Shown piece by piece: positions 1 to 11,480 of a stretch of DNA of 44,240 nucleotides. The translations under genes were made by a program, and so were the position numbers. Source of the DNA: Kiloniella sp. (GTDB taxonomy: Bacteria > Pseudomonadota > Alphaproteobacteria > UBA7985); the NCBI GenBank assembly GCA_002690455.1, contig NZET01000021.1:34227-78466 (forward strand), read 5' to 3'. How positions within the stretch are numbered: the stretch's first letter is position 1; each line of letters starts with the position of its first letter. Under the pieces are notes generated by a model. It worked only from the letters and a program-made list of their open reading frames with translations. It did no database searches and was not told the DNA's origin.

Positions 1-884
1 ACGCTCTGCGCGTTCGCAGCGGCCTGGAAGCCAAAAATCGGTTCTAGCACGCGGAAGGCGTCCATGATGTGGATCAGCAGGACGAAGGTAATCAGCGGCA
101 TCAGGTGGGGCAGGATCACGTAGCGCAGGCGGTCAAAGCGCGGGGCGCCGTCGATCATCGCGGCCTCTAGTTGGTCCTGACTGACGGTCTGCAGTCCGGC
201 GTAGAACACCACGAAGGCGAAGGGTGTGACGTGCCAGATGCCATAGACCGCGATCACCGACCACGTCGCCTGTGGGCTAGCCCGGAGTGAGAAGTCATCC
301 GCCCAGAATGCTAGCGTATTCGTAAGGGTGTAGAGCAGGCCGCCAGTGTTGTCGGTCATCCAGAACAGCACCAACGAGCCGACCAGTGGTGTGACGATGA
401 AGGGCAGCAGGCTGGCAAAGATCGTCGGCCCGCGCAGCGGTCGCCACAGATTATCGACGACCAAGGCCACAATTAGACCCAGCACAATGATGAAAGGCGT
501 GGTGATCAGTGTATAAAACAGGGTGAAGGCCAAGGCCTTATAGAGTGGTAGGTTGAGCACAACCTTGGACCAGTATTTGCCCATCTCGCCCTTGTTTTCC
601 GACCAGCCAGTCGCAAGCTCGCCGCAGGCCAAAACCGACCGTCCACAGAAAAAGTCCAAGCCCCTAAAGATATTCCGGCCCTCGACTTTCTCTATTGTCA
701 CAGTCTTCTCGCAGCTCCGCGTCCCAGTCAGGAAGTTCGTCGAGCAGATTTCCGACTGCACCTCGATGTCCCGCGGTGGCGAAAACAGCGACTGATACCC
801 TACGCTGATCAACGGCAGCAGGATAAACAGCACCATGGCCAGCAGGCTGGGCATCAGAAAGGCAAAGAATGCGCGATGGGGCAT
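1..884 (-). CDS. ABC transporter permease, MalF type (3' part cut by window edge)
   Basis: Inner-membrane permease of a carbohydrate-type ABC importer. About 294 residues are visible from ATG at 884, with no stop before the window edge. A hydrophobic segment lies at residues 5-27. A soluble, presumably periplasmic, insertion of roughly residues 30-110 carries four cysteines (SEIC, RSC, FFC, LAC), and further membrane segments follow (LYKALAFTLFYTLITTPFIIV and later). The cytoplasmic EAA loop that contacts the ATPase is clear (EAAMIDGAPRFDRLRY). It lies downstream of the ATPase and binding-protein genes on the same strand, and a second permease is expected beyond the window. No good ribosome site precedes the ATG, so a start at the inner Met (residue 11) is possible. 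The substrate cannot be read from the sequence. Confidence 0.88.
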   Translation of the reverse strand, partial: MPHRAFFAFLMPSLLAMVLFILLPLISVGYQSLFSPPRDIEVQSEICSTNFLTGTRSCEKTVTIEKVEGRNIFRGLDFFCGRSVLACGELATGWSENKGEMGKYWSKVVLNLPLYKALAFTLFYTLITTPFIIVLGLIVALVVDNLWRPLRGPTIFASLLPFIVTPLVGSLVLFWMTDNTGGLLYTLTNTLAFWADDFSLRASPQATWSVIAVYGIWHVTPFAFVVFYAGLQTVSQDQLEAAMIDGAPRFDRLRYVILPHLMPLITFVLLIHIMDAFRVLEPIFGFQAAANAQS

Positions 885-959
885 GATTGGAAGGACCGGG
901 TCTCAGCTCAGCCACGGCGCGACACCATTTAGGAACGGGCCGGACTGCTTGAAAGAGGA

Positions 960-985
960 ACCGGGGGACGCAGCCGCCCCCCGGT
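960..985 (-). other. stem-loop between binding-protein and permease genes
   Basis: Perfect 8-bp arms (ACCGGGGG at 960-967 and CCCCCGGT at 978-985) around a 10-nt loop, in the gap after the binding-protein stop codon and before the permease start. Read on the minus strand it is followed only by a weak pyrimidine run, so it is more likely an mRNA-stabilising or attenuating hairpin than a full terminator. Such hairpins are known after malE-type genes. Confidence 0.55.
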
Positions 986-1007
986 CAAGACAGGTGTCGC
1001 TGCTGGC

Positions 1008-2201
1008 TTATTCAGCCAGAGCAGCGTTGTAGGCAGCAACAACGTCCGCCAGAGCCTGCTCAGCGCTTTCCTGACCGCTCAGGAACTCGGTGAGTTCAGC
1101 GCCCAGAGCTGTGTGCATCTTACCCATGTGCGAGTACATCGGGTAAGCTGGTACACCGTTGCCAGCGGTCGCGAAGACGCCAGCGGCAGCAGGGGTGGCT
1201 TCGTAGGCGTCCATCATCCAGACCAGCAGGCCCATGTTGTCGCCCCTGGCGAGCATGTCGCCATCAGCAGAGTCAATCGCAAGAGCAACTGCCCGAGCCA
1301 GGTCTTCTTCGGACTGATTAGCCGCGAAGAAGTAACCATCCCACCACAGGGTCGAAGCTGGCGTGGAGCCACCGCCCATGGTTGGTGCCGAGCCCATGAC
1401 GACTTCAACACCGAGGGCTGCACCGCCGTCGATGACCTTCTGAGCGCGAGTGCCCCAGAGGTTGGCGATACCGGCAGTGCCCTGCTCGAACTGAGCCTGA
1501 ACTGCGTCAGAGTTGAAAGTCAGGAAGTCTGGGTTCATGCGTGAGGTCAGCTCTTTCATCATGTTGAGCGTCGCAATACCCGCATCGTTCTGGATGTTGG
1601 CTTCGGTGCCGTTGACAAACATTGGTTCGCCGGTGGCCTGCCACATGTTGACGAATTCTTCGCCGAGGTTCCAGCCAGCAGCGTAGGTGCCGGTCAGTGG
1701 GTATTCCATCAGGCCAGCAGCCTTAGCAGCGTCAGCCAGAGCCAGGACTTCTTCGTAGGTCGAAGGCATATCCATGCCGGTCGCCTCAAGGACGTCAGCG
1801 CGGACCATCAGGTGCTGTGCGTTTGCACCAACGGCGATGGCAACAACTTCGCCGTCCTGTTCAACCTTCATCGCGGTTGGCAGGTCAGCAACGCCAGGGA
1901 CGTCGGTAATGACGGCAACCAGACCTTCGCTGTTCGCTGCGGTAAAGGTGCTGTTGGCACCCAGTACAGCGTTGTAGGCCGAAGGGTTTGCGGCCAGAGC
2001 AGCGTTAATCTTGTCTTTGTGCTCCTGGTCACGCTCGGTTGCAGCACCACAGGCAGCGGACTCGTCCTGAAGCGCTTCTACCGCAGGGAAAGCTGCGGAC
2101 AGAATCGAGAGGCCTGCACCGTCAACGGCACACGCACTTGCATATGATGCGCTGAACAGCGCTGCGGAGGTTGCCACTAGGGCAATACGGATCTTTTTCA
2201 T
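1008..2201 (-). CDS. extracellular solute-binding protein, family 1 (MalE-like)
   Basis: Periplasmic substrate-binding component of the ABC importer, 397 residues. The N-terminus MKKIRIALVATSAALFSASYASA is a textbook signal peptide (KK, hydrophobic core, ASA cleavage box). The start at 2201 is chosen over the longer frame because GGGAGA sits 7 nt upstream and the signal peptide begins there. The mature part has the usual family-1 features: an N-lobe with a paired Cys, a central hinge, and a Trp/aromatic-rich C-terminal half (STLWWDGYFFA) of the kind that stacks on sugar rings. The family binds sugars, sugar alcohols or glycerol-phosphate-type ligands, but the ligand here is unknown. It lies between the ATPase and permease genes and has a stem-loop on each side, consistent with separate control of binding-protein dosage. 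Confidence 0.9.
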   Translation of the reverse strand: MKKIRIALVATSAALFSASYASACAVDGAGLSILSAAFPAVEALQDESAACGAATERDQEHKDKINAALAANPSAYNAVLGANSTFTAANSEGLVAVITDVPGVADLPTAMKVEQDGEVVAIAVGANAQHLMVRADVLEATGMDMPSTYEEVLALADAAKAAGLMEYPLTGTYAAGWNLGEEFVNMWQATGEPMFVNGTEANIQNDAGIATLNMMKELTSRMNPDFLTFNSDAVQAQFEQGTAGIANLWGTRAQKVIDGGAALGVEVVMGSAPTMGGGSTPASTLWWDGYFFAANQSEEDLARAVALAIDSADGDMLARGDNMGLLVWMMDAYEATPAAAGVFATAGNGVPAYPMYSHMGKMHTALGAELTEFLSGQESAEQALADVVAAYNAALAE

Positions 2202-2224
2202 CGTGTTTCTCCCATGAGTTAAGC

Positions 2225-2255
2225 GCGTCACCCGCAATAAGATTGCCGGTGACGC
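2225..2255 (-). promoter_or_regulatory. long inverted repeat in the leader of the binding-protein gene
   Basis: Arms at 2225-2237 and 2243-2255 pair over 13 bp with one mismatch around a 5-nt loop (outer arms GCGTCACC / GGTGACGC). It lies 24 nt upstream of the binding-protein ATG, inside the 157-nt gap after the ATPase gene. No T-tract follows on the minus strand, so it could be an operator, a processing stem or an attenuator. Confidence 0.5.
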
Positions 2256-2358
2256 CCTATCCAGTCCGCCCCCTAAGCCGGCCTGAATGCTGTGATCTGC
2301 CTGTCGCGGTCTTTCGGTCCATCTCGGGCCGGGTCGCGCCGGGCAGGAAATCTGTTTT

Positions 2359-3402
2359 TTACAGGCGGGATCCTGTCTTCAGGTCGAATAGATGGCAGAC
2401 CGCCGGATCGATCTTGAACCCGATGTCCGAACCGATGTCGGCGCGGAAGTCTTTCGGGGCCTTGCCACTGATTATTTCGCTACCTGAGCGGATCGAAACC
2501 TGTGTTGCATCGCCGAGCAGTTCCATCGAGTAAACAGGTGCCTTGGCATTGCCACCGCGCTTAACCACCTCGACATCTTCGGCACGGAAGCCGAGGGTAA
2601 CTGGGCCGTCCCCGGCCTTCAGACCCTTGATGGTCACGTTAGGGCCGGTGAAAGTACCGCCGCTGACAGAGCCGGCGACCAGATTCATGGCCGGAGAGCC
2701 AATAAACCCGGCGACAAAAGTATTGGCCGGACAGTCATAGATTTCCGTCGGGGTGCCAATCTGTTGGATCTCGCCCTTGTTCATCACCACAACGCGGTCC
2801 GCGAGGGTCATGGCTTCGATCTGGTCGTGGGTCACGTAGATCGTTGTCACCGCCAATTCGTGCTGGAGATTCTTTATCTGGGCACGTGTCGAAACGCGGA
2901 GCTTGGCGTCGAGATTGGAGAGCGGCTCATCCATCAGGAACACTGAGGGTCGGCGAACGATTGCCCTCGCCAGAGCGACCCGCTGGCGCTGCCCGCCAGA
3001 GAGCTCCTTTGGCAGTCGATCGAGCAGGTCGCCCAATTCTACCATATCAGCGGCACGGTGTATCATCGCGTCGTGCTCCGCTCGTGGAACGCCCCGAACT
3101 TTCAGCGGGAACCGGATATTCTCACGGACGGTCATGGTGGGGTAGAGCCCATAGTTCTGGAAAACCATGGCAACATCGCGGTCTTTGGGTTCAAGGTCGT
3201 TGATGCGATTGCCGTCGACGCGAATCTCCCCATCTGTCGGGGTTTCCAGCCCGGCAATCATACGCATCGTCGTCGTCTTGCCGCACCCGGAAGGGCCCAG
3301 CAATACAAGGAACTCTCGATCAGAAATGGTAAGGTCGAACTTATCGACACCGACAAAACTGCCCCAGCGTTTACTGAGGTTAAGCAGTTGAATTTCGCCC
3401 AT
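2359..3402 (-). CDS. ABC transporter ATP-binding protein, MalK/UgpC/MsmK type
   Basis: Cytoplasmic ATPase that powers the importer, 347 residues, the normal length for the MalK/UgpC class. All nucleotide-binding motifs are intact: Walker A GPSGCGKT (residues 36-43), Q-loop Gln82, signature LSGGQ (134-138), Walker B ending in DE (158-159) and the H-loop His192. After about residue 235 comes the TOBE/OB-fold regulatory region typical of carbohydrate importers. It is the first gene of the minus-strand transporter set, 157 nt ahead of the binding protein. The 268-nt region behind its start is shared with the divergent NTF2-like gene and holds a perfect 16-bp palindrome. One MalK-type ATPase may serve more than one permease pair. 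Confidence 0.93.
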   Translation of the reverse strand: MGEIQLLNLSKRWGSFVGVDKFDLTISDREFLVLLGPSGCGKTTTMRMIAGLETPTDGEIRVDGNRINDLEPKDRDVAMVFQNYGLYPTMTVRENIRFPLKVRGVPRAEHDAMIHRAADMVELGDLLDRLPKELSGGQRQRVALARAIVRRPSVFLMDEPLSNLDAKLRVSTRAQIKNLQHELAVTTIYVTHDQIEAMTLADRVVVMNKGEIQQIGTPTEIYDCPANTFVAGFIGSPAMNLVAGSVSGGTFTGPNVTIKGLKAGDGPVTLGFRAEDVEVVKRGGNAKAPVYSMELLGDATQVSIRSGSEIISGKAPKDFRADIGSDIGFKIDPAVCHLFDLKTGSRL

Positions 3403-3444
3403 AGGGATCGCAAGCGCCTCTTAGACATGATCAAGTTGTGCCGA

Positions 3445-3474
3445 ATGCTAGACCCGGGTCGAAGTTTTTGGCAA
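3445..3474 (-). promoter_or_regulatory. candidate promoter for the ABC transporter genes
   Basis: On the minus strand TTGCCA (3474-3469) is followed after 18 nt by TAGCAT (3450-3445), a plausible -35/-10 pair about 40 nt upstream of the ATPase start. The palindrome at 3482-3497 lies just upstream. This is consensus matching only, with no other support. Confidence 0.3.
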
Positions 3475-3481
3475 CAGGTTT

Positions 3482-3497
3482 TTGCATGCGCATGCAA
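3482..3497. promoter_or_regulatory. perfect 16-bp palindrome, likely operator
   Basis: TTGCATGCGCATGCAA is perfectly self-complementary with a central CG, the layout typical of LacI/GalR-family operators. It lies in the divergent region between the transporter and the NTF2-like gene, a usual place for control of a sugar-type importer. No LacI-family gene is present in the window. Confidence 0.55.
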
Positions 3498-3670
3498 TAT
3501 AGTTTAACTCTCACAGCCACACGACTTCTGTCTGACGTTGAGTGGCCCAAGTGCGAGGCTCCCGGGGCGAAATTGTCGCTCAACCTTTCTCTGCGAGAAA
3601 GGTGGCTATCAGCGCCGAAAATCGGGTAGAGGCAGGTGAAATCTTTGCGCAGAGCGACCGGAGACAGATA

Positions 3671-4669
3671 ATGGAATTTCAGACCGAGAAGCAGCTGGTG
3701 CTGGAATACTACGCCGCACTGGACAAAGCGCCTCTCGGGGGGAGTGAGTCTGTGCTCCAACGGTATCTGTCGCCATCACTGATTTGGCGTGGTTTCCATC
3801 CCTTTAACGAGATCAGTGATGCCGGCCACCTGGCTTCAACCGTCTGGGAACCGATCAAGACCTCGTTGACCGGCCTGCAGCGTCGCATGGATATTTTCTT
3901 TGCCGGCGGCAACAGCCTCACCAGCGAGGAAGACCGGTCAGCTTGGGTGGTGTCCATGGGGCACCTTATGGGCCTGTTTGACCAACCCCTTCTCGGGATA
4001 CGGCCCACGCGTCGTATTGCCATGCTGCCGTATTGCGAATTTCTGCGCGTTGAAGACGGACGGATCACTGAAGTTGCGTTCTACTTTGACCTGCCAAGCC
4101 TGATGGGCCAAGCCGGCGTGCATCCTTTTCCGCCGCAGACCGGCGCTCAACTGCTCCAGCCCGGCCCACAGGGCCACGGTGGCCTCTTGTTCGACCAGCA
4201 ACCCGCTGTTGAGGGAGAGGCGACATTAGCGGCCATTAACGCCATGATCTCGGATTTGGGCCAGTGGCAGGGCGGGCTTCCTCTCGAAGACGAGCTGGCG
4301 CGAACATGGCACAGCGACATGCTCTGGTGGGGACCGACCGGGATCGGCGCGACCTATACCATCGAGCGCTATGCCAAGCAGCACTCCGGTCCATTCCGTG
4401 CAGCCTTTGCTGATCGGTCAAATACAAACCACGTCTGCCGCACTGCGGAGGGCCACTTTGGCGGTTTCTTTGGTTGGCCCAACTTCACCGCCAGGCATGT
4501 CGGCGGGTTCATGGGGATGCCGGGCAGCGAAACAACACTAGAGTTCCGGGTCATTGACCTTTATCGACGCGAGGGCGACAAACTCGCCGAAAACTGGATC
4601 TTCATCGATTTGCTGCACGTGCTAAAGCAACAGGGTATGGACGTGCTTGCACGTCTGGAGACCCTGTAA
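3671..4669 (+). CDS. NTF2/SnoaL-fold protein with two tandem domains
   Basis: A 332-residue protein made of two SnoaL-like (NTF2-fold) halves. Half one (about 5-150) has YYAALDKA, then LSPSLIWRGFHPF, then FLRVEDGRITEVAFYFD. Half two (about 180-325) has the matching pattern TWHSDMLWWGPTG, then FRVIDLYRREGDKLAENWIFIDLLH. The family includes ester cyclases, dehydratases and isomerases that use the cone-shaped pocket. The specific reaction here is unknown. The start at 3671 is preferred because GGAGA lies 6-7 nt upstream. The same frame extends back to 3542, but that extension looks like leader sequence. It is the first gene of the plus-strand block and lies 59 nt before the kinase/phospho-lyase fusion, so it is probably co-transcribed and acts in the same pathway. 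No signal peptide is seen. Confidence 0.8.
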   Translation: MEFQTEKQLVLEYYAALDKAPLGGSESVLQRYLSPSLIWRGFHPFNEISDAGHLASTVWEPIKTSLTGLQRRMDIFFAGGNSLTSEEDRSAWVVSMGHLMGLFDQPLLGIRPTRRIAMLPYCEFLRVEDGRITEVAFYFDLPSLMGQAGVHPFPPQTGAQLLQPGPQGHGGLLFDQQPAVEGEATLAAINAMISDLGQWQGGLPLEDELARTWHSDMLWWGPTGIGATYTIERYAKQHSGPFRAAFADRSNTNHVCRTAEGHFGGFFGWPNFTARHVGGFMGMPGSETTLEFRVIDLYRREGDKLAENWIFIDLLHVLKQQGMDVLARLETL

Positions 4670-4728: not shown

Positions 4729-7700
4729 GTGACAAACAGCACGGATAACCCCACGCCAGCCCACCAAACAGCCGTGTCTGCAGATGCAGCATCGGTGGCG
4801 CATGCTGTGCCAACGGCCCACTGGTCTAGGATGGTTGCAAAGCATTGGGGCGAAGACCGCCCCCCCTCACTGACCCCCTTATACGGTGAATACGACCTCA
4901 ACCTTCTGGCGGAATCAGCCACAGGTTCCGCGAGCGTCGTTAAGATCATGCGTGTGGGTTGCCAACCCGAAGACATCGGTTTTCAGACTTCGATGATGCA
5001 GCGGTTGCAGTCAGTCCAGGGCGTTCCGGTTCCTGACATACTGCCAACCGCCCAAGGAACGCTGGTTGCACACGCAAGCGACGAGCAGGGTCGGAAACGA
5101 CTGATCTGGCGGCTGGCGCTGCTGTCGGGTAGCACGTTGAATCAACATCAGTTGACCGAGGCACTGATCACTGAAATCGGTGCAATGATCGCTCGCATGC
5201 ATGCGGCGCTGGCAGATTTCGACGACCCGGCGCTGGACCGAAGCTTCAAGTGGGATTTGTGTGCGGCGGATTGGATTGTGCCGCATTTGGCTCTGTTCGA
5301 CGACGACACAGCCTTGAAAGGTCAACTCGCTGGGCTGCTGGAATGGTACAGCGACGCAGGAAAGGCGGCGCTGGCCGCACTCCCGCGTCAGCCCATTCAC
5401 AACGACCTGAACCTGCATAACCTGATGGCGGTCAGCCATCCGGGGCAGGGGCCACGCCTGTCAGGTCTCCTCGACTTCGGTGATGCGCTGCATAACCCCC
5501 GTATCTGTGATCTGGCGATCGCGGGCGCCTATCTGGCTAGTGCTAGTGTTCGCCCGGTTGAAGCTCTGGCTGCACTGGTCGAGGGCTACACGCATTTGGA
5601 AACACTGCGCGAAGGGGAAATCGACCTTCTGTGGCCATTGATGCAGACCCGGCTGGCGGTAAGCCTGACGAATTCAGGGCTGCAAAAGCAGGCACGCCCA
5701 GACGATCCCTATGTGGTGATCTCGGAGGCACCTGCGCGGGCACTGTTGGCGACTGTTCGTGATCTCGACCCGCGCTTTGCCGGCGAGCGTCTCCGAGCGG
5801 CGGCTGGGCTGCCCAGCGGCTTGGCGACACTGCCCACAGCCTTTCGTGGCTTGCACCCGATGTTTGAGATTGAGGTGGGTCATTTGCCGGTAGTCGATTT
5901 GACCCCAGATAATTTGCGCCTAGCCGCCAACCAAACTCGTCCGGATGCCGCAGAACTCGACGCTGTTATCGATGCTGCAACCGATCAGGACGAAGGTGGA
6001 AGAAGGGGCTGTCTTGGCCGCTGGGGTGAGGCACGATTGATCTACGGCGGGGAGGGCTTCGGCCGAACGGATCATGTCGCACGACGACGGCGGACAGTGC
6101 ACATTGGGCTAGACGTGTTCTTGCCTCCGGGCAGCGAAGTCCGAGCCGTGCTGCCGGGCCGGGTAGTATTTGCAGGCGACCGCCCCGAGCACCATGACTA
6201 CGGTGGTACACTGCTGCTGGAGCACCACCCCCATGATGGCCCCGTCTTCCGCGTACTCTACGGCCATCTGAGCCGTACGAGCGCCAGCCGTTTCGCCCCC
6301 GGGGATACCTTTGGCGCAGGTGAGGTGATTGCCTGGCTGGGTGATAAGACGGAGAACGGTGGCTGGCCCCCGCATCTGCATCTGCAACTCGGCGGTAGCG
6401 ATGCCCCGGACGATCCGGGCGACTGGCCTGGTGTGGTTGACCCTGACGATTGGGATCTATGGGCGCAGCTCTTCCCCAATCCTGCCGTCCTTGCGGGCGT
6501 TGAGCCAGCACGTGTTGAGGCCCTCCCTCCTGCGCTTTCGCGGATGCAGGAACGCCGGAAAGCGCTGACCAGTGCGAACCTCAAGCTTTCCTACCGCGAG
6601 CCCATCCATGTAATCCGCGGGCAGGGCAGCACGCTTATCGACGCTCAGGGTCGTCGCTTTCTGGACGCCTACAACAACGTGCCACACGTCGGTCACGCCC
6701 ACCCCTATGTTGCCGCCCGTGTGTCGGAGCAGGTGCAGCGGTTGAGTACAAACACCCGGTATCTCTCTGAACTGCAGTTGGACTATGCTGAAGCGCTGCT
6801 GGCGCGGTTTCCTGACGAATTCGATACCTGTTTTCTGGTCAATTCAGGCAGTGAGGCCAACGAAGTTGCCATGCGACTGGCGACGACTTTTACTGGGCGC
6901 CGCGATATGGCTGTTTCTGAAGCGGGCTATCATGGAATCACCCAGAAAGCGCTCGACATCAGTCACTATAAGTTTGCCGGTAAAGGCGGTCAGGGGCAGG
7001 CAGACTGGGTCCATGTCCTGCCTATCCCCAACACCTTTAGCGGACCTTTTACCGGAAAGGACGCCCCCGAACGATACACGGCCCAAGCCGAAGGACTGAT
7101 TTCGGCCATTGGGGCAGGGAGCCGTGACAGGGCACTGGCTGCCTGCCTGCTGGAAATCTTCCCCAGTGTCGGTGGCCAGTTAATCCCGCCAACCGGCTAC
7201 CTATCGGGCCTGCAGCGTGCTGTGCACCACGCTGGAGGACTGTTGATTGCCGACGAGGTGCAGACGGGGCTGGGTCGGTTAGGGCGGCATTTCTGGGCCT
7301 TTGAACAACAAGGGTTGCAGCCTGATATCGTGGTACTCGGAAAGCCTATCGGAAACGGGCACCCCATGGGCGCAGTGCTGACGCGGCGGGAAATCGCCGA
7401 TGCCTTTAGCAATGGTATGGAGTTTTTTTCGACCTTTGGCGGGTCAACCGTTTCCTGTGCGGCGGGTCGTGCGGTGCTTGAGGTGATCGAGGCGGATGGT
7501 CTTGAAGGCCGGGCCGCGCAGACTGGTGCCATGCTGCTTGATGGACTGACTGCCCTGTTCAGCCGCAGCGTGCTGCCCACTGACGTTCGTGGGGTAGGGC
7601 TGTTTATCGGTGTCGAAATCTGCCACGCGGACAATAGCCCTGCGACTGCAATCGTTGGTCAGTTGGTCAATGCCATGCGCCGCCGCAGGGTCCTGATGGG

Positions 7701-7821
7701 CTCGGATGGCCCGCATGACAGTGTGCTGAAAATTCGGCCGCCAATCTGCTTCTGTGCCGAGGATGCGGCCTTCTTCCTCGAAGCCATGGAAGCCAGCCTG
7801 CGCGAGGTGGGACTGACTTGA
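4729..7821 (+). CDS. trifunctional kinase (APH fold) / M23 peptidase / class III PLP ammoniophospholyase
   Basis: A 1030-residue fusion, GTG start at 4729 with AAGAGA upstream. Residues about 35-340 are an aminoglycoside-phosphotransferase/choline-kinase fold with the catalytic loop HNDLNLHNL (Asp226) and the metal site LDFGD (Asp249). Residues about 430-580 are an M23/LytM domain with its zinc ligands present (HIGLD: His458, Asp462; HLHL: His549, His551). Residues about 600-1030 are a class III aminotransferase fold with PLP Lys872 (GKPIGNGHP). The last domain follows vertebrate ETNPPL/PHYKPL closely (NNVPHVGHAHP, STNTRYL, SDGPH, LKIRPP). Bacterial kinase fusions of this type led to the assignment of those enzymes as phospho-lyases. 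The likely chemistry is to phosphorylate a hydroxyl of an amine, then eliminate phosphate and ammonia to give an aldehyde. No signal peptide, so cytosolic. The substrate could be hydroxylysine, ethanolamine or another amino alcohol. Confidence 0.9.
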   Translation: MTNSTDNPTPAHQTAVSADAASVAHAVPTAHWSRMVAKHWGEDRPPSLTPLYGEYDLNLLAESATGSASVVKIMRVGCQPEDIGFQTSMMQRLQSVQGVPVPDILPTAQGTLVAHASDEQGRKRLIWRLALLSGSTLNQHQLTEALITEIGAMIARMHAALADFDDPALDRSFKWDLCAADWIVPHLALFDDDTALKGQLAGLLEWYSDAGKAALAALPRQPIHNDLNLHNLMAVSHPGQGPRLSGLLDFGDALHNPRICDLAIAGAYLASASVRPVEALAALVEGYTHLETLREGEIDLLWPLMQTRLAVSLTNSGLQKQARPDDPYVVISEAPARALLATVRDLDPRFAGERLRAAAGLPSGLATLPTAFRGLHPMFEIEVGHLPVVDLTPDNLRLAANQTRPDAAELDAVIDAATDQDEGGRRGCLGRWGEARLIYGGEGFGRTDHVARRRRTVHIGLDVFLPPGSEVRAVLPGRVVFAGDRPEHHDYGGTLLLEHHPHDGPVFRVLYGHLSRTSASRFAPGDTFGAGEVIAWLGDKTENGGWPPHLHLQLGGSDAPDDPGDWPGVVDPDDWDLWAQLFPNPAVLAGVEPARVEALPPALSRMQERRKALTSANLKLSYREPIHVIRGQGSTLIDAQGRRFLDAYNNVPHVGHAHPYVAARVSEQVQRLSTNTRYLSELQLDYAEALLARFPDEFDTCFLVNSGSEANEVAMRLATTFTGRRDMAVSEAGYHGITQKALDISHYKFAGKGGQGQADWVHVLPIPNTFSGPFTGKDAPERYTAQAEGLISAIGAGSRDRALAACLLEIFPSVGGQLIPPTGYLSGLQRAVHHAGGLLIADEVQTGLGRLGRHFWAFEQQGLQPDIVVLGKPIGNGHPMGAVLTRREIADAFSNGMEFFSTFGGSTVSCAAGRAVLEVIEADGLEGRAAQTGAMLLDGLTALFSRSVLPTDVRGVGLFIGVEICHADNSPATAIVGQLVNAMRRRRVLMGSDGPHDSVLKIRPPICFCAEDAAFFLEAMEASLREVGLT

Positions 7822-10800
7822 GCACTGAAACCACGCCTTCATTTTCGGATCAGCACTGGCAGTTCTGGGTTGACCGCGGCGGCACGTTTACCGATGTCGT
7901 TGGTTGTTTCCCTTCGGGGGAAATCCGCAAACACAAGCTGCTCTCCGAGAACCCCGAGCACTACCCGGATGCCGCCGTTGAAGGCATCCGTGTGCTGTTG
8001 GGCCTTAGCCGGGAACAGCCGATCCCGCCGGGGGTGCTGGATAGCGTCAAGATGGGCACGACCGTTGCAACCAATGCTCTTCTCGAACGGAAGGGTGAGC
8101 CAACAGTGTTGGTCACCACCGCTGGCTTCGAGGATCAACTGCGGATCGGATATCAGAATCGACCAAATTTGTTCGATCTGCATGTTCGCGTACCCGCAAT
8201 GCTTTACAGCCAGGTCATTGGTGCAGATGAGCGGTTAGATCAAGGTGGAGCAGTGCTCCGACCGCTCGATCAGACCCGTCTCCGGATAGGCATGCAGGCA
8301 GCGTTCGACGCCGGTTATCGCGCGGTCGCTATTGCCTTCCTCCATGGCTACCGCTTCCCCCAGCATGAGCAGGTGGCGGGCGAGATTGCTCGTGAAGTCG
8401 GCTTCACTCAGGTCTCGCTCAGCCACGCGGTCAGCCCGTTGGTCAAGTTGGTCTCACGCGGTGATACAACGGTGGTCGACGCCTATCTCTCGCCCGTTTT
8501 GCGCCGTTATGTGAGGCAGGTGCGCGATGCCTTGGGTGAGGCTATGGTCTCCTCATCCGGGCTGATGTTTATGCAGTCAAACGGCGGCCTCGCGGACGCA
8601 TCAATGTTTCAGGGCAAGGATGCCATTCTCTCCGGTCCCGCAGGTGGGGTCGTCGGCATGGTACGCACGGCGCAGCAGGCGGGCTTTGACCGTGTGATTG
8701 GTTTCGATATGGGTGGAACGTCAACCGATGTTTGCCATTTCGCCGGAGCCTACGAGCAGTCTTTTGAAACCGAGGTTGCCGGGGTGCGCCTGCGAGCACC
8801 GATGATGAACATTCACACAGTGGCCGCTGGCGGCGGGTCAATCCTCAAATTCGAGGACGGGCGGCTGCAAGTCGGTCCGGAAAGCGCAGGCGCCAATCCT
8901 GGCCCCGCGTGCTATCGCCGGGGCGGGCCACTGACCGTGACCGATTGTAATGTCTTGCTGGGCAAGGTGCAGGCGCAGTACTTCCCCGCCGTTTTCGGCC
9001 CCGACGGTGCCCAGCCTCTGGACCGTGCCGTTGTGGTGGAGAAGTTCAGCGCGCTGGCTGTTGAGATAGCGAATGCTTTGGAGGAGCCACCGCTCAGCCC
9101 TGAAGCGTTGGCCGAAGGCTTCCTGCGCATCGCGGTCGAGAATATGGCAAACGCCATCAAAAAAATCTCGGTCCAGCGCGGTTACGACGTTACCAGCTAT
9201 ACGTTGAATAGCTTTGGCGGTGCGGGCGGACAGCACGCCTGTCAAGTCGCCGATGTGCTGGGTATGAAGCAGGTTTTTCTCCACCCGTTCGCGGGTGTGC
9301 TGTCTGCTTTTGGCATGGGGCTCGCTGATGTACGTGCCTCTAGACAGTTCCAGTTCGACCGCCCGCTAACAGACCTTGGCGAAGCGGCACCAAGGTTTGA
9401 TGCACTCTCGGCTGAGGTCCGCGCGGCGGTCGCTGCACAGGGCATCTCAGCCGATCAGATTACCGTTCATCAGCGGGTTCACGTTCGCACGGCCGGTGCC
9501 CATCAGAGCCTGCCGCTGAGCCGTGCAGATGAATCGGCCCTCGTCTCGGCCTTTATCGACTCACACCACCAGCGCTATGGTTTCCGACCAGATACCTCAG
9601 CGCTGGTGGTGGAAATGCTGGAGGTCGAGGGCGTGGGGCACACAGGGCAGGACCCGGTGCTCGACCGGCCGCCCCTGCCGGGCCCGGCGCACATTGACGA
9701 TTGTATCGTTCATCAGCGAGGTGCAGCGCAGGCTGTACCGGTGTTCGAACGTGCGCGGTTGTCACTCGGAGATACCATCGACGGACCGGCTCTGTTAACC
9801 GAGGAAACCGGCACCACCATGGTTGAGCGAGGTTGGCAGGCGCAATGCTTAAGTGGTGGTAATCTACTGCTCAGCCGGGTTGAAAGATTGGCACGGCAGG
9901 ATGCGGTTGGAACAGCGGTTGATCCGATAATGCTGGAGGTTTTCAACAACCAGTTCATGACCATCGCGGACCAGATGGGGGCCACGCTGGAAAACACCGC
10001 CTATTCGGTCAATATCAAGGAACGGCTTGATTTCTCGTGCGCCTTGTTTGATGCGCACGGCGATCTGGTGGCCAACGCGCCGCACGTGCCTGTGCACCTC
10101 GGATCGATGAGCGAGAGCGTGAAGAAGATCCTGCACGACAACGCCGGCCTGATCCGTCCTGGCGACGTGTTCATGATGAACAACCCTTTCAATGGCGGCA
10201 CTCACCTTCCGGATGTAACGGTAATCACACCAGTTTTTGGGTCTGGGCCTGAAGGTGGCGCACCGGAGATTGTGGCGACGGTCGCCAGTCGGGGACACCA
10301 TGCGGATATCGGTGGGCGCACGCCGGGCTCTGCGCCGCCGGACAGCCGTCACATCACCGAGGAAGGCGTTGTCATCGATAATTTCCGGCTGGTGTCACAA
10401 GGCGTTCTCGAAGACGCTGCTGCCCGAGCGCTGCTGCTGTCCGGCGACTATCCTTGCCGGAACGTCGAGCAGAACATGGCCGACCTCGCCGCGCAGATCG
10501 CAGCAAACAGCACCGGAGAGCAGGCGCTCCGTGCCCTGATTGACCAATACGGGCTTCAAACCGTCCACGCCTACATGGATCATGTCAAAGACAACGCCGA
10601 AGAGAGTGTTCGACGCGTGATTGACGTGCTCAGCGATGCCAGTTTCACCCATCGATTGGACACTGGCGCTGAAATACGAGTGTCGATCCAGGTCGATCGG
10701 GAACAGCGCAGTGCACAGCTGGATTTTACCGGTACATCTGCGCAGGACGCACTAAACTATAACGCGCCGGCTTCGATCTGCACGGCGGTGGTTCTTTATG

Positions 10801-11480
10801 TCTTTCGGACGTTGGTGGGCAAGAACATTCCCATGAACGAAGGGTGTCTGCAGCCCCTTGAACTGGTAATTCCTGAAGGCTCCATGATAAATCCACGCTA
10901 TCCAGCGGCCGTTATTTCTGGGAACACCGAAGTCAGTCAGGCCATCGCCGAAGCCCTTTATGGCGCGCTAGGGGTGCTGGCGGGCTCTCAGGGAACGATG
11001 AACAACTTCGTCTATGGCAACGCGCGGGTGCAGAACTATGAAACCATCTGCGGTGGCACGGGCGCAGGGCCGGACTTCGACGGCGCTTCGGCCGTGCACA
11101 GCCACATGACCAATACCCGTATGACCGACCCGGAGGTGCTGGAGCAGCGCTTCCCTGTGCGGGTTGAGGCTTTCACCATCCGGCAGGGGTCCGGTGGACG
11201 AGGGCGACACCGTGGTGGGGATGGGGTCGAGCGGCGTCTGCGCTTTCTCGAACCCATGACCGTGACGGTGCTGACATCACATCGGCTGGAGCGCCCCCAT
11301 GGCAGCGCAGGCGGCCAACCGGGTCAGCCCGGCGAGAACTGGGTCGAGCGGGCCGATGGTCGCCAGGAGCGGCTGTCAGGGAACGACCAAACCGAGGTTT
11401 CATCGGGAGATCAGGTGATTATGCTGACCCCGGGTGGGGGTGGATTTGGCCCTGACTCGTCTCGTCCTTCATCTTCGTAG
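7818..11480 (+). CDS. fused HyuA-HyuB ATP-dependent lactamase, 5-oxoprolinase type
   Basis: A 1220-residue protein in which the HyuA half (about 1-690) and HyuB half (about 700-1210) are one chain, as in eukaryotic 5-oxoprolinase (OPLAH/Oxp1, about 1290 residues). HyuA motifs are intact: [53 protein letters not shown] and [11 protein letters not shown]. HyuB motifs include [23 protein letters not shown] and a glycine-rich C-terminus. The known reaction is ATP-driven opening of 5-oxo-L-proline to glutamate, and relatives open hydantoins. The start is TTG at 7818, overlapping the previous stop (TTGA) with GAGGTGGGA upstream, so translation is coupled to the kinase/phospho-lyase gene. That suggests a lactam or cyclised amino acid in the same pathway. 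The closest match by eye is Oxp1. Confidence 0.88.

What the first reader, a model, noticed from the sequence alone, without database searches (positions are those of the whole stretch)
4729..7821. Trifunctional amino-alcohol kinase / M23 / ammoniophospholyase fusion
Three complete domains with their catalytic residues (Asp226/Asp249; His458/Asp462/His549/His551; Lys872) in one cytosolic chain. The PLP domain carries ETNPPL/PHYKPL-specific stretches (NNVPHVGHAHP, SDGPH, LKIRPP), so the kinase product is probably passed directly to the lyase. Such bacterial fusions are known and helped assign the vertebrate enzymes, but the natural bacterial substrate is, to my knowledge, not settled.
Basis: partly seen in the sequence, partly recalled or inferred. 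Interest (0 to 1): 0.72.

Follow-up and report, generated by a model that had tools for sequence, protein, structure and literature searches.

The report
Three-enzyme amino-alcohol-degrading fusion protein
One bacterial protein carries a kinase, a zinc hydrolase and an ammonia-releasing enzyme that together probably break down small amino alcohols; the type is already catalogued and widespread, but what the middle, zinc-binding part does is still unknown.

Summary
The PLP domain is a phospholyase by kinship: two trees place it with human ETNPPL and Arthrobacter A1RDF1 and apart from all 14 aminotransferase/racemase rows (100/100), and the predicted fold matches ETNPPL best (Z 55). The kinase fold is nearest homoserine, N-acetylhexosamine and aminopropanol kinases. 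Likely core chemistry: amino alcohol + ATP, then aldehyde + ammonia + phosphate. The architecture is catalogued (NCBIfam PRK06148/PRK06149) and, from recall, in print since 2012: a new member of a known kind. New here: the M23 zinc ligands are intact in 83 of 83 full-length fusions, from about eight phyla by record title, and in stand-alone M23 proteins without a signal segment, but the ligand histidines are lost in 6 of 6 PRK06149-type relatives that keep kinase and lyase residues. That points to a real, untested hydrolase step. The substrate stays open: context hints differ between lineages, and the enzyme expected after hydroxylysine breakdown was not found in the window's genus.

The parts
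4729..7821 (+). trifunctional APH - M23 - class III PLP fusion, 1030 aa, GTG start
4930..5589 (+). APH-family kinase domain (aa 68-287 in Pfam; kinase helices and strands of the model run from about aa 29 to 371)
   Evidence: Pfam APH; model; D226, N231, D249, D252 in 83 of 83 fusions; fold nearest 2ppq, 4ocj, 6ef6
6097..6396 (+). M23 zinc-hydrolase domain (aa 457-556) with H458, D462, H513, H549, H551
   Evidence: Pfam M23; lysostaphin-type matches; zinc ligands in 83 of 83, H513 in 82 of 83
6601..7794 (+). PLP phospholyase domain (aa 625-1022), Schiff-base lysine K872
7818..11480 (+). HyuA-HyuB fusion (ATP-dependent cyclic amide hydrolase type); its TTG start overlaps the stop of the trifunctional gene by 4 bp
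   Evidence: Pfam; best PDB match N-methylhydantoinase 7hk5, E 3.8e-132; the same overlap in L040 and L123
11621..13123 (+). aldehyde dehydrogenase, below the cut-off of every NCBIfam model shown; kept in G002 (94% identity)
3542..4669 (+). SnoaL-domain protein just upstream (true start uncertain; homologues 330-342 aa); travels with the ABC cluster rather than strictly with the fusion
2359..3402 (-). UgpC/MalK-type ABC ATPase, divergent from the fusion operon
1008..2237 (-). extracellular solute-binding protein (SBP_bac_1) of the same ABC cluster

Best explanation
The protein is a PRK06148-like trifunctional catabolic enzyme of the cytosol. (1) Inferred: the APH domain phosphorylates the hydroxyl group of a small amino alcohol with ATP. 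(2) Inferred, well supported by kinship: the PLP domain eliminates phosphate and ammonia from the phospho-amino-alcohol and leaves an aldehyde, as ETNPPL does with phosphoethanolamine (and A1RDF1, recalled). (3) Inferred: the aldehyde is oxidised by the aldehyde dehydrogenase of the same operon. (4) Inferred: the M23 domain is a live zinc hydrolase; its likeliest role is to free the amino alcohol from an amide or peptide-like conjugate before phosphorylation. The HyuAB cyclic amide hydrolase gene that overlaps the fusion in this genus fits a conjugated or cyclic starting compound. The exact substrate is not fixed by the evidence; ethanolamine or a short-chain relative is the default for the window's genus.
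For: PLP domain: best PDB hits 6tor ETNPPL E 7.6e-111 (375 bits) and 5g4i A1RDF1 E 3.6e-89 (303 bits), next class III enzymes about 166 bits. Fold: 6tor Z 55.4, rmsd 1.4 A, 393 aligned; 5g4i Z 50.5, rmsd 2.1 A, 420 aligned; other class III enzymes 49.2 and below (model pLDDT 87.7, pTM 0.84). Trees: the 14 aminotransferase/racemase rows lie apart from the phospholyase rows with 100/100 (39 rows; 44 rows). N649, N650, R677, P873, F900 are in 39 of 39 phospholyase rows and each in at most 1 of 14 others. Kinase fold nearest homoserine kinase 2ppq (Z 27.6), N-acetylhexosamine kinase 4ocj (27.5) and, lower, aminopropanol kinase 6ef6 (24.4). M23: zinc ligands in 83 of 83 full fusions, H513 in 82 of 83; the same residues in the two APH-M23, one M23-PLP and three stand-alone forms aligned. 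Pairwise fusions APH-M23, M23-PLP and APH-PLP and separate kinase and lyase genes all occur. Operon: 4-bp overlap with HyuAB in 3 of 3 genus genomes in which both were seen; ALDH in 2 of 2 whose contig reaches it. No EutB in any of 12 fusion genomes, some of them incomplete.
Against: No activity of a live-M23 fusion was seen in the listings (open-licence papers only). The score against NF004799 is below its curated cut-off (1059 against 1128). Neighbours are diverse outside the genus: close homologues of HyuAB and this ALDH were found only in the window's genus, and two genus members at 66-67% identity show other neighbours. Other class III enzymes also fit the PLP fold well (Z 46-49). The PRK06149 branch shows that an M23 remnant can persist without its zinc site, so a purely structural role exists somewhere in the family.
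Confidence: 0.72

Rival explanations
1. The same machine, but the natural substrate is an amino acid with a hydroxyl group, above all 5-hydroxylysine; the product is 2-aminoadipate 6-semialdehyde (P6C).
For: An Lrp/AsnC-type regulator (a family that senses amino acids, recalled) lies within 710 bp of the fusion in 10 of 91 loci; only one other Lrp hit was seen, 5.4 kb away. Three of the ten are the query genes themselves, so 7 of 8 without self-hits, and these seven come from three arrangements; about 9% of the flanks lie that close. L163, fetched for its fusion, shows the order Lrp - fusion - amino-acid SBP. An amino-acid SBP also follows in L156 and L157. A Klebsiella plasmid pairs an APH kinase and an M23-less lyase with a lysine/arginine/ornithine importer. 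P6C dehydrogenase NF050084 is over cut-off in 5 of 8 fusion genomes against 45 of 291 others (Fisher p 0.004).
Against: The co-occurrence is confounded by descent: 3 of the 5 positives lie in one family (f57), in which at least 8 sampled genomes without a live-M23 match also have P6C dehydrogenase. No match to it at E 1e-90 in any of 5 genomes of the window's genus, two of them 94% and 96% complete, nor in G169 and G250. No Lrp match in the 44-kb window.
Confidence: 0.3
2. The M23 domain is only a structural spacer that holds kinase and lyase in register.
For: In PRK06149-type proteins the M23 region persists as a shortened remnant although H458, H549 and H551 are gone in 6 of 6. In the aligned trifunctional forms the M23 domain sits between the other two.
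Against: In the live branch H458, D462, H549, H551, N543 and W546 are in 83 of 83 and H513 in 82 of 83. The same subfamily stands alone as 205-298 aa proteins without a signal segment in 3 of 11 genomes that have it, where no spacing role is possible. APH-PLP fusions do without it.
Confidence: 0.28
3. The PLP domain is an ordinary omega-aminotransferase and the kinase acts on something else.
For: Same fold and superfamily; Pfam names it Aminotran_3.
Against: Both trees separate it from all 14 aminotransferase/racemase rows with 100/100; nearest kin are two characterised phospholyases.
Confidence: 0.04

Closest known systems
NCBIfam NF004799 / PRK06148.1 'hypothetical protein' (subfamily, 1015 positions)
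   Same: Same three domains in the same order over the full length, 1059 bits
   Different: Just below the curated cut-off of 1128 bits; the family carries no function name
Human ETNPPL (AGXT2L1), 6tor
   Same: PLP domain fold (Z 55.4, rmsd 1.4 A, 42% identity); shares Y747, K748, E809, Q817, G896, E898 with the live-M23 rows
   Different: Stand-alone; no kinase, no M23
Arthrobacter aurescens A1RDF1 phospholyase, 5g4i
   Same: PLP domain fold (Z 50.5, 39% identity); the five all-lyase signature residues
   Different: Stand-alone; belongs to the M23-less clade (98/100)
NCBIfam NF004800 / PRK06149.1 'aminotransferase'
   Same: Kinase and lyase domains with their residues
   Different: M23 region is a remnant: H458, H549, H551 lost in 6 of 6, D462 kept in 4 of 6; PLP positions 748, 817 and 898 differ
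APH-fold kinases of amino alcohols and hydroxy amino acids: homoserine kinase 2ppq, microcompartment aminopropanol kinase 6ef6
   Same: Kinase fold, Z 27.6 and 24.4
   Different: 18-20% identity, no fusion; N-acetylhexosamine kinase 4ocj scores as high (27.5). That 6ef6 works beside a phospholyase in aminopropanol breakdown is recalled, not read
Lysostaphin-type M23 endopeptidases (4qp5)
   Same: HxxxD, YxHL and HxH pattern
   Different: Secreted cell-wall enzymes (recalled); here no signal segment, and the last motif has the form NG[GD]Wx[PS]H[LV]HxQ

Membership tests
PLP phospholyases (ETNPPL/PHYKPL/A1RDF1, EC 4.2.3.2 type) | Groups with characterised phospholyases, not with aminotransferases | tested here: met
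   100/100 in both trees; no PHYKPL sequence was at hand
PLP phospholyases (ETNPPL/PHYKPL/A1RDF1, EC 4.2.3.2 type) | Residues that separate lyases from aminotransferases (N649, N650, R677, P873, F900; derived here, not taken from print) | tested here: met
   F900 lies in a motif that was used to find the loci, so among those its conservation is partly by construction
PLP phospholyases (ETNPPL/PHYKPL/A1RDF1, EC 4.2.3.2 type) | Phosphate and ammonia release from a phospho-amino-alcohol | not testable with these tools
   needs an enzyme assay
Ordinary class III omega-aminotransferases | Clusters with GABA-AT, AcOrnAT or omega-TA rows | tested here: not met
NCBIfam NF004799 PRK06148 | Curated score cut-off 1128 bits | tested here: not met
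   1059.2 bits
NCBIfam NF004799 PRK06148 | Full-length three-domain match | tested here: met
   profile 5-1011 of 1015
APH-type small-molecule kinases | APH domain over cut-off with HxD catalytic Asp and the DFGD metal site | tested here: met
Hydroxylysine kinase (HYKK/AGPHD1) | Closer to HYKK than to other APH kinases; activity on hydroxylysine | not tested
   no HYKK sequence was at hand; no PDB relative of the domain at E 0.01 by sequence
M23 metallopeptidases | H-x3-D, catalytic YxH, HxH | tested here: met
M23 metallopeptidases (cell-wall type) | Export by a signal peptide | tested here: not met
   no hydrophobic N-terminal segment (hydropathy only)

The most novel reading that the evidence does not exclude
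The M23 domain is the first enzyme of a complete three-step catabolic chain in one polypeptide: a cytosolic zinc amidase/peptidase that frees an amino alcohol from a conjugate, which the kinase then phosphorylates and the lyase breaks down. It would belong to an M23 subfamily (NG[GD]Wx[PS]H[LV]HxQ) that works in metabolism rather than on the cell wall. The three-domain form would be ancestral to the phospholyase family: the deep PRK06149 branch keeps a dead M23 remnant, while stand-alone lyases, human ETNPPL included, would have lost kinase and M23.
Probability: 0.4. Interest if true: 0.65.

Novelty: new member of a known kind. Interest (0 to 1): 0.45.

Why it matters
Bacterial kinase-phospholyase fusions gave the clue to the vertebrate enzymes ETNPPL and PHYKPL (recalled), yet their own substrate has stayed unknown and the role of the M23 domain unexplained as far as my searches show. 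The results make both testable. The M23 site is under strict constraint in one branch and lost in another, with the PLP residues at 748, 817 and 898 differing between the two, so paired assays of a live-M23 and a dead-M23 fusion could reveal the missing substrate. If the M23 domain is a metabolic amidase, a family known for cutting cell walls has a second career inside the cell.

Tried and rejected
Conserved gene neighbourhood across all loci: rejected. Apart from the fusion itself (82 loci) and generic ABC ATPases (21), the largest shared neighbour cluster held 9 loci, and those that I annotated are small clades with unrelated genes such as ferrochelatase or a DUF4097 protein (20 neighbours annotated).

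Peptide importers as a partner of the M23 module: seen beside the stand-alone M23 of L143 and the M23-PLP protein of L145, but elsewhere only scattered hits, so not claimed.

Claim that live-M23 rows plus human ETNPPL form one clade: supported 97/95 in tree 1, but not kept when five PRK06149 rows were added (live-M23 rows are one side of a branch in 44% of bootstraps, and ETNPPL is unplaced among them). The AU test on tree 1 did not reject live-M23 rows without ETNPPL either (p 0.121). I therefore do not claim where ETNPPL branches.

Hydroxylysine as the window's substrate: kept as a rival only, because P6C dehydrogenase was not found in the genus.

EutB absence is weak evidence, as the base rate was not measured.

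Sampling limits. Of these 80, 76 gave one full ORF in my simple gene caller; L075 and L119 came out as two ORFs each, L084 and L087 were missed by the caller. The 85 rows are the window, these 76, three plasmid loci and five loci of relatives; two duplicates (L120 = L041, L122 = L040) were dropped for the 83-row count. Phyla are read from record titles only.

M23 fold search: the VIA list for the APH+M23 model was filled by kinases, so the M23 fold is shown by sequence only. In the dead-M23 proteins the remnant aligns loosely; and disagree on position 513 of the 976-aa protein.

Papers: the 2012 JBC paper and the 2020 structure paper are not held. PMC8154272, PMC12138971, PMC13406643 and PMC9283133 were seen as passages only; all other papers as listings.
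Full report
What is there. The + strand ORF 4729-7821 encodes 1030 aa from a GTG codon. Pfam finds, above cut-off, APH (68-287), Peptidase_M23 (457-556) and Aminotran_3 (625-1022). NCBIfam gives a full-length match to PRK06148 (1059 bits, cut-off 1128) and a weaker one to PRK06149 (583 bits, cut-off 973). The window lies in a 1.69 Mb, 63% complete genome; 4 of 5 other genomes held for the genus carry an orthologue.

The lyase domain. By sequence the best solved relatives are human ETNPPL (E 7.6e-111) and A1RDF1 (3.6e-89), far ahead of racemases and GABA aminotransferases. An AlphaFold model (pLDDT 87.7, pTM 0.84) aligns best to the same two (Z 55.4 and 50.5; next 49.2). In a 53-row tree the phospholyase rows (39) part from the 14 aminotransferase/racemase rows with 100/100; a 58-row tree repeats this (44 against 14). 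Five positions are fixed in the 39 lyase rows and nearly absent from the 14. Activity itself is not shown.

The kinase domain. It has no PDB relative by sequence at E 0.01, but the predicted APH+M23 part (pLDDT 90.4) is closest to homoserine kinase 2ppq (Z 27.6) and N-acetylhexosamine kinase 4ocj (27.5), with aminopropanol kinase 6ef6 lower (24.4). A kinase that makes the lyase's substrate is the natural reading; hand-over between domains was not tested.

The M23 domain. Its sequence matches lysostaphin-type endopeptidases weakly (4e-7). In 83 full-length fusions (window included) H458, D462, N543, W546, H549 and H551 are in 83 of 83 and H513 in 82 of 83. By record title they come from Alpha-, Gamma- and Deltaproteobacteria, Gemmatimonadota, Acidobacteria, Bacteroidota, Chloroflexota, Planctomycetota and Acidimicrobiales. 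A profile of this M23 subfamily was found in 11 of 299 Pseudomonadota genomes at E 1e-25, 12 places: eight in fusions of about 1000 aa, one in an M23-PLP protein, three in stand-alone proteins of 205, 224 and 298 aa without a signal segment. I also fetched APH-M23 proteins without a lyase from two genomes (G006, G008) and APH-PLP proteins without M23 from four (G006, G026, G044, G047). The six M23-bearing variants aligned keep all five residues. Against this, PRK06149-type fusions (5 of 299 genomes over cut-off, plus the 976-aa protein beside a live fusion in Sinorhizobium meliloti Ak57) keep the kinase and lyase residues but have lost H458, H549 and H551 in 6 of 6, while D462 remains in 4. 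Pfam finds no M23 domain in the 976-aa protein. Five of these PLP domains, the 976-aa one among them, form a separate clade (100/100), and positions 748, 817 and 898 differ from the live-M23 rows in all six. In the 83 live-M23 fusions K748 and Q817 are invariant, outside the motifs used for finding them. So the state of the M23 site goes with a class of lyase pocket, which argues for a catalytic role in the live branch.

Evolution. M23-less rows form one clade (98/100) and dead-M23 rows another (100/100). With the aminotransferases outside, the dead-M23 branch splits first (91/98, not fully supported), which would make the three-domain form ancestral. Tree 1 put human ETNPPL with the live-M23 rows (97/95), but tree 2 leaves it unresolved, and the AU test does not decide (p 0.121).

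Context. In the genus the fusion is preceded by a SnoaL-domain gene and followed by a HyuA-HyuB fusion whose start overlaps the stop codon by 4 bp in the window, G005 (L040) and G002 (L123), then by an aldehyde dehydrogenase (window and G002; the G005 contig ends earlier). HyuAB matches N-methylhydantoinase best. An aldehyde dehydrogenase after a lyase that makes an aldehyde is what one would expect. Genus members at 66-67% identity (L041/G004, L121/G001) show other neighbours, so HyuAB is not essential to the machine.

Substrate. Hints differ by lineage. In Rhizobiaceae, Microvirga and Aestuariispira an Lrp/AsnC regulator adjoins the fusion (10 of 91 loci; 7 of 8 hits lie near after removal of three self-hits), and amino-acid binding proteins follow in three loci. 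This suggests a hydroxy amino acid such as hydroxylysine. P6C dehydrogenase, the expected next enzyme, is commoner in fusion genomes (5 of 8 against 45 of 291) but in a confounded way, and none of the five genomes of the window's genus has a match at E 1e-90. For the window, ethanolamine or a short relative is therefore my default. EutB, the usual ethanolamine ammonia-lyase, was not found in any of 12 fusion genomes tested; its base rate was not measured.

Novelty. The listings of my paper searches showed no study of this fusion's activity and none of a cytosolic M23 role (open-licence papers only). PRK06148 appears in one Mycoplasma secretome paper, seen in the listing only. I recall that the 2012 JBC abstract mentions bi- and trifunctional bacterial homologues; it is not held, but a 2025 review lists the paper among its gene-fusion references. 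The architecture is therefore known; the window adds a member. The constraint on M23, its loss in PRK06149 proteins and its stand-alone forms are what I would report as new observations.

Noticed in passing
L158 5011-14299 (G004:C4, same genus); L155 5974-11858 (Rhizobium leguminosarum plasmid): An M23-less phospholyase plus APH kinase lies inside a 4-hydroxyphenylacetate operon in the window's genus (NCBIfam: HpaB, HpaD, HpaE, HpaH over cut-off, HpaI below it), and beside hpaR/hpaE/hpaD in R. leguminosarum. This suggests a kinase-lyase route for octopamine- or noradrenaline-type amino alcohols into 4-hydroxyphenylacetate. Three plasmid relatives looked at (Ruegeria pomeroyi, R. conchae, Shinella HZN7) show no hpa gene within 7 kb.
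   Followed up: partly
L157 7947-15129 (S. meliloti Ak57 pSymB): A live-M23 and a dead-M23 (976 aa) fusion lie one gene apart on opposite strands, next to hut genes: a natural pair for comparing substrates.
   Followed up: partly
L124, L145, L146, L147 (genome G047): One genome holds four forms of the module: full fusion, M23-PLP, APH-PLP, and split kinase plus lyase.
   Followed up: no
L143 9395-16185; L142 8581-9477; L144 9238-9855: Stand-alone M23 proteins of the same subfamily without a signal segment; the one in L143 lies 2 bp from an MFS transporter gene on the same strand and near an oligopeptide-type ABC importer.
   Followed up: partly
window 1-4669; L040 221-9958; L073 1030-9576: A cluster of SnoaL, histidinol-dehydrogenase-like and sugar-type ABC genes (with a LacI regulator in L040) beside the fusion in the genus, and in similar form in L073 where the fusion is only 40% identical; an unassigned catabolic cluster.
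   Followed up: no
L154 838-7254 (Klebsiella pneumoniae plasmid): Lysine/arginine/ornithine-type ABC importer with an APH kinase and an M23-less lyase, on a plasmid typed as conjugative; 42 Klebsiella plasmid records match the window's lyase domain at E 1e-60.
   Followed up: no
L128 9123-11799; L129 9613-12052: APH-M23 proteins without a lyase domain, each tail to tail with a gene that looks like a threonine-dehydratase-type PLP enzyme (judged from its sequence, not searched).
   Followed up: no
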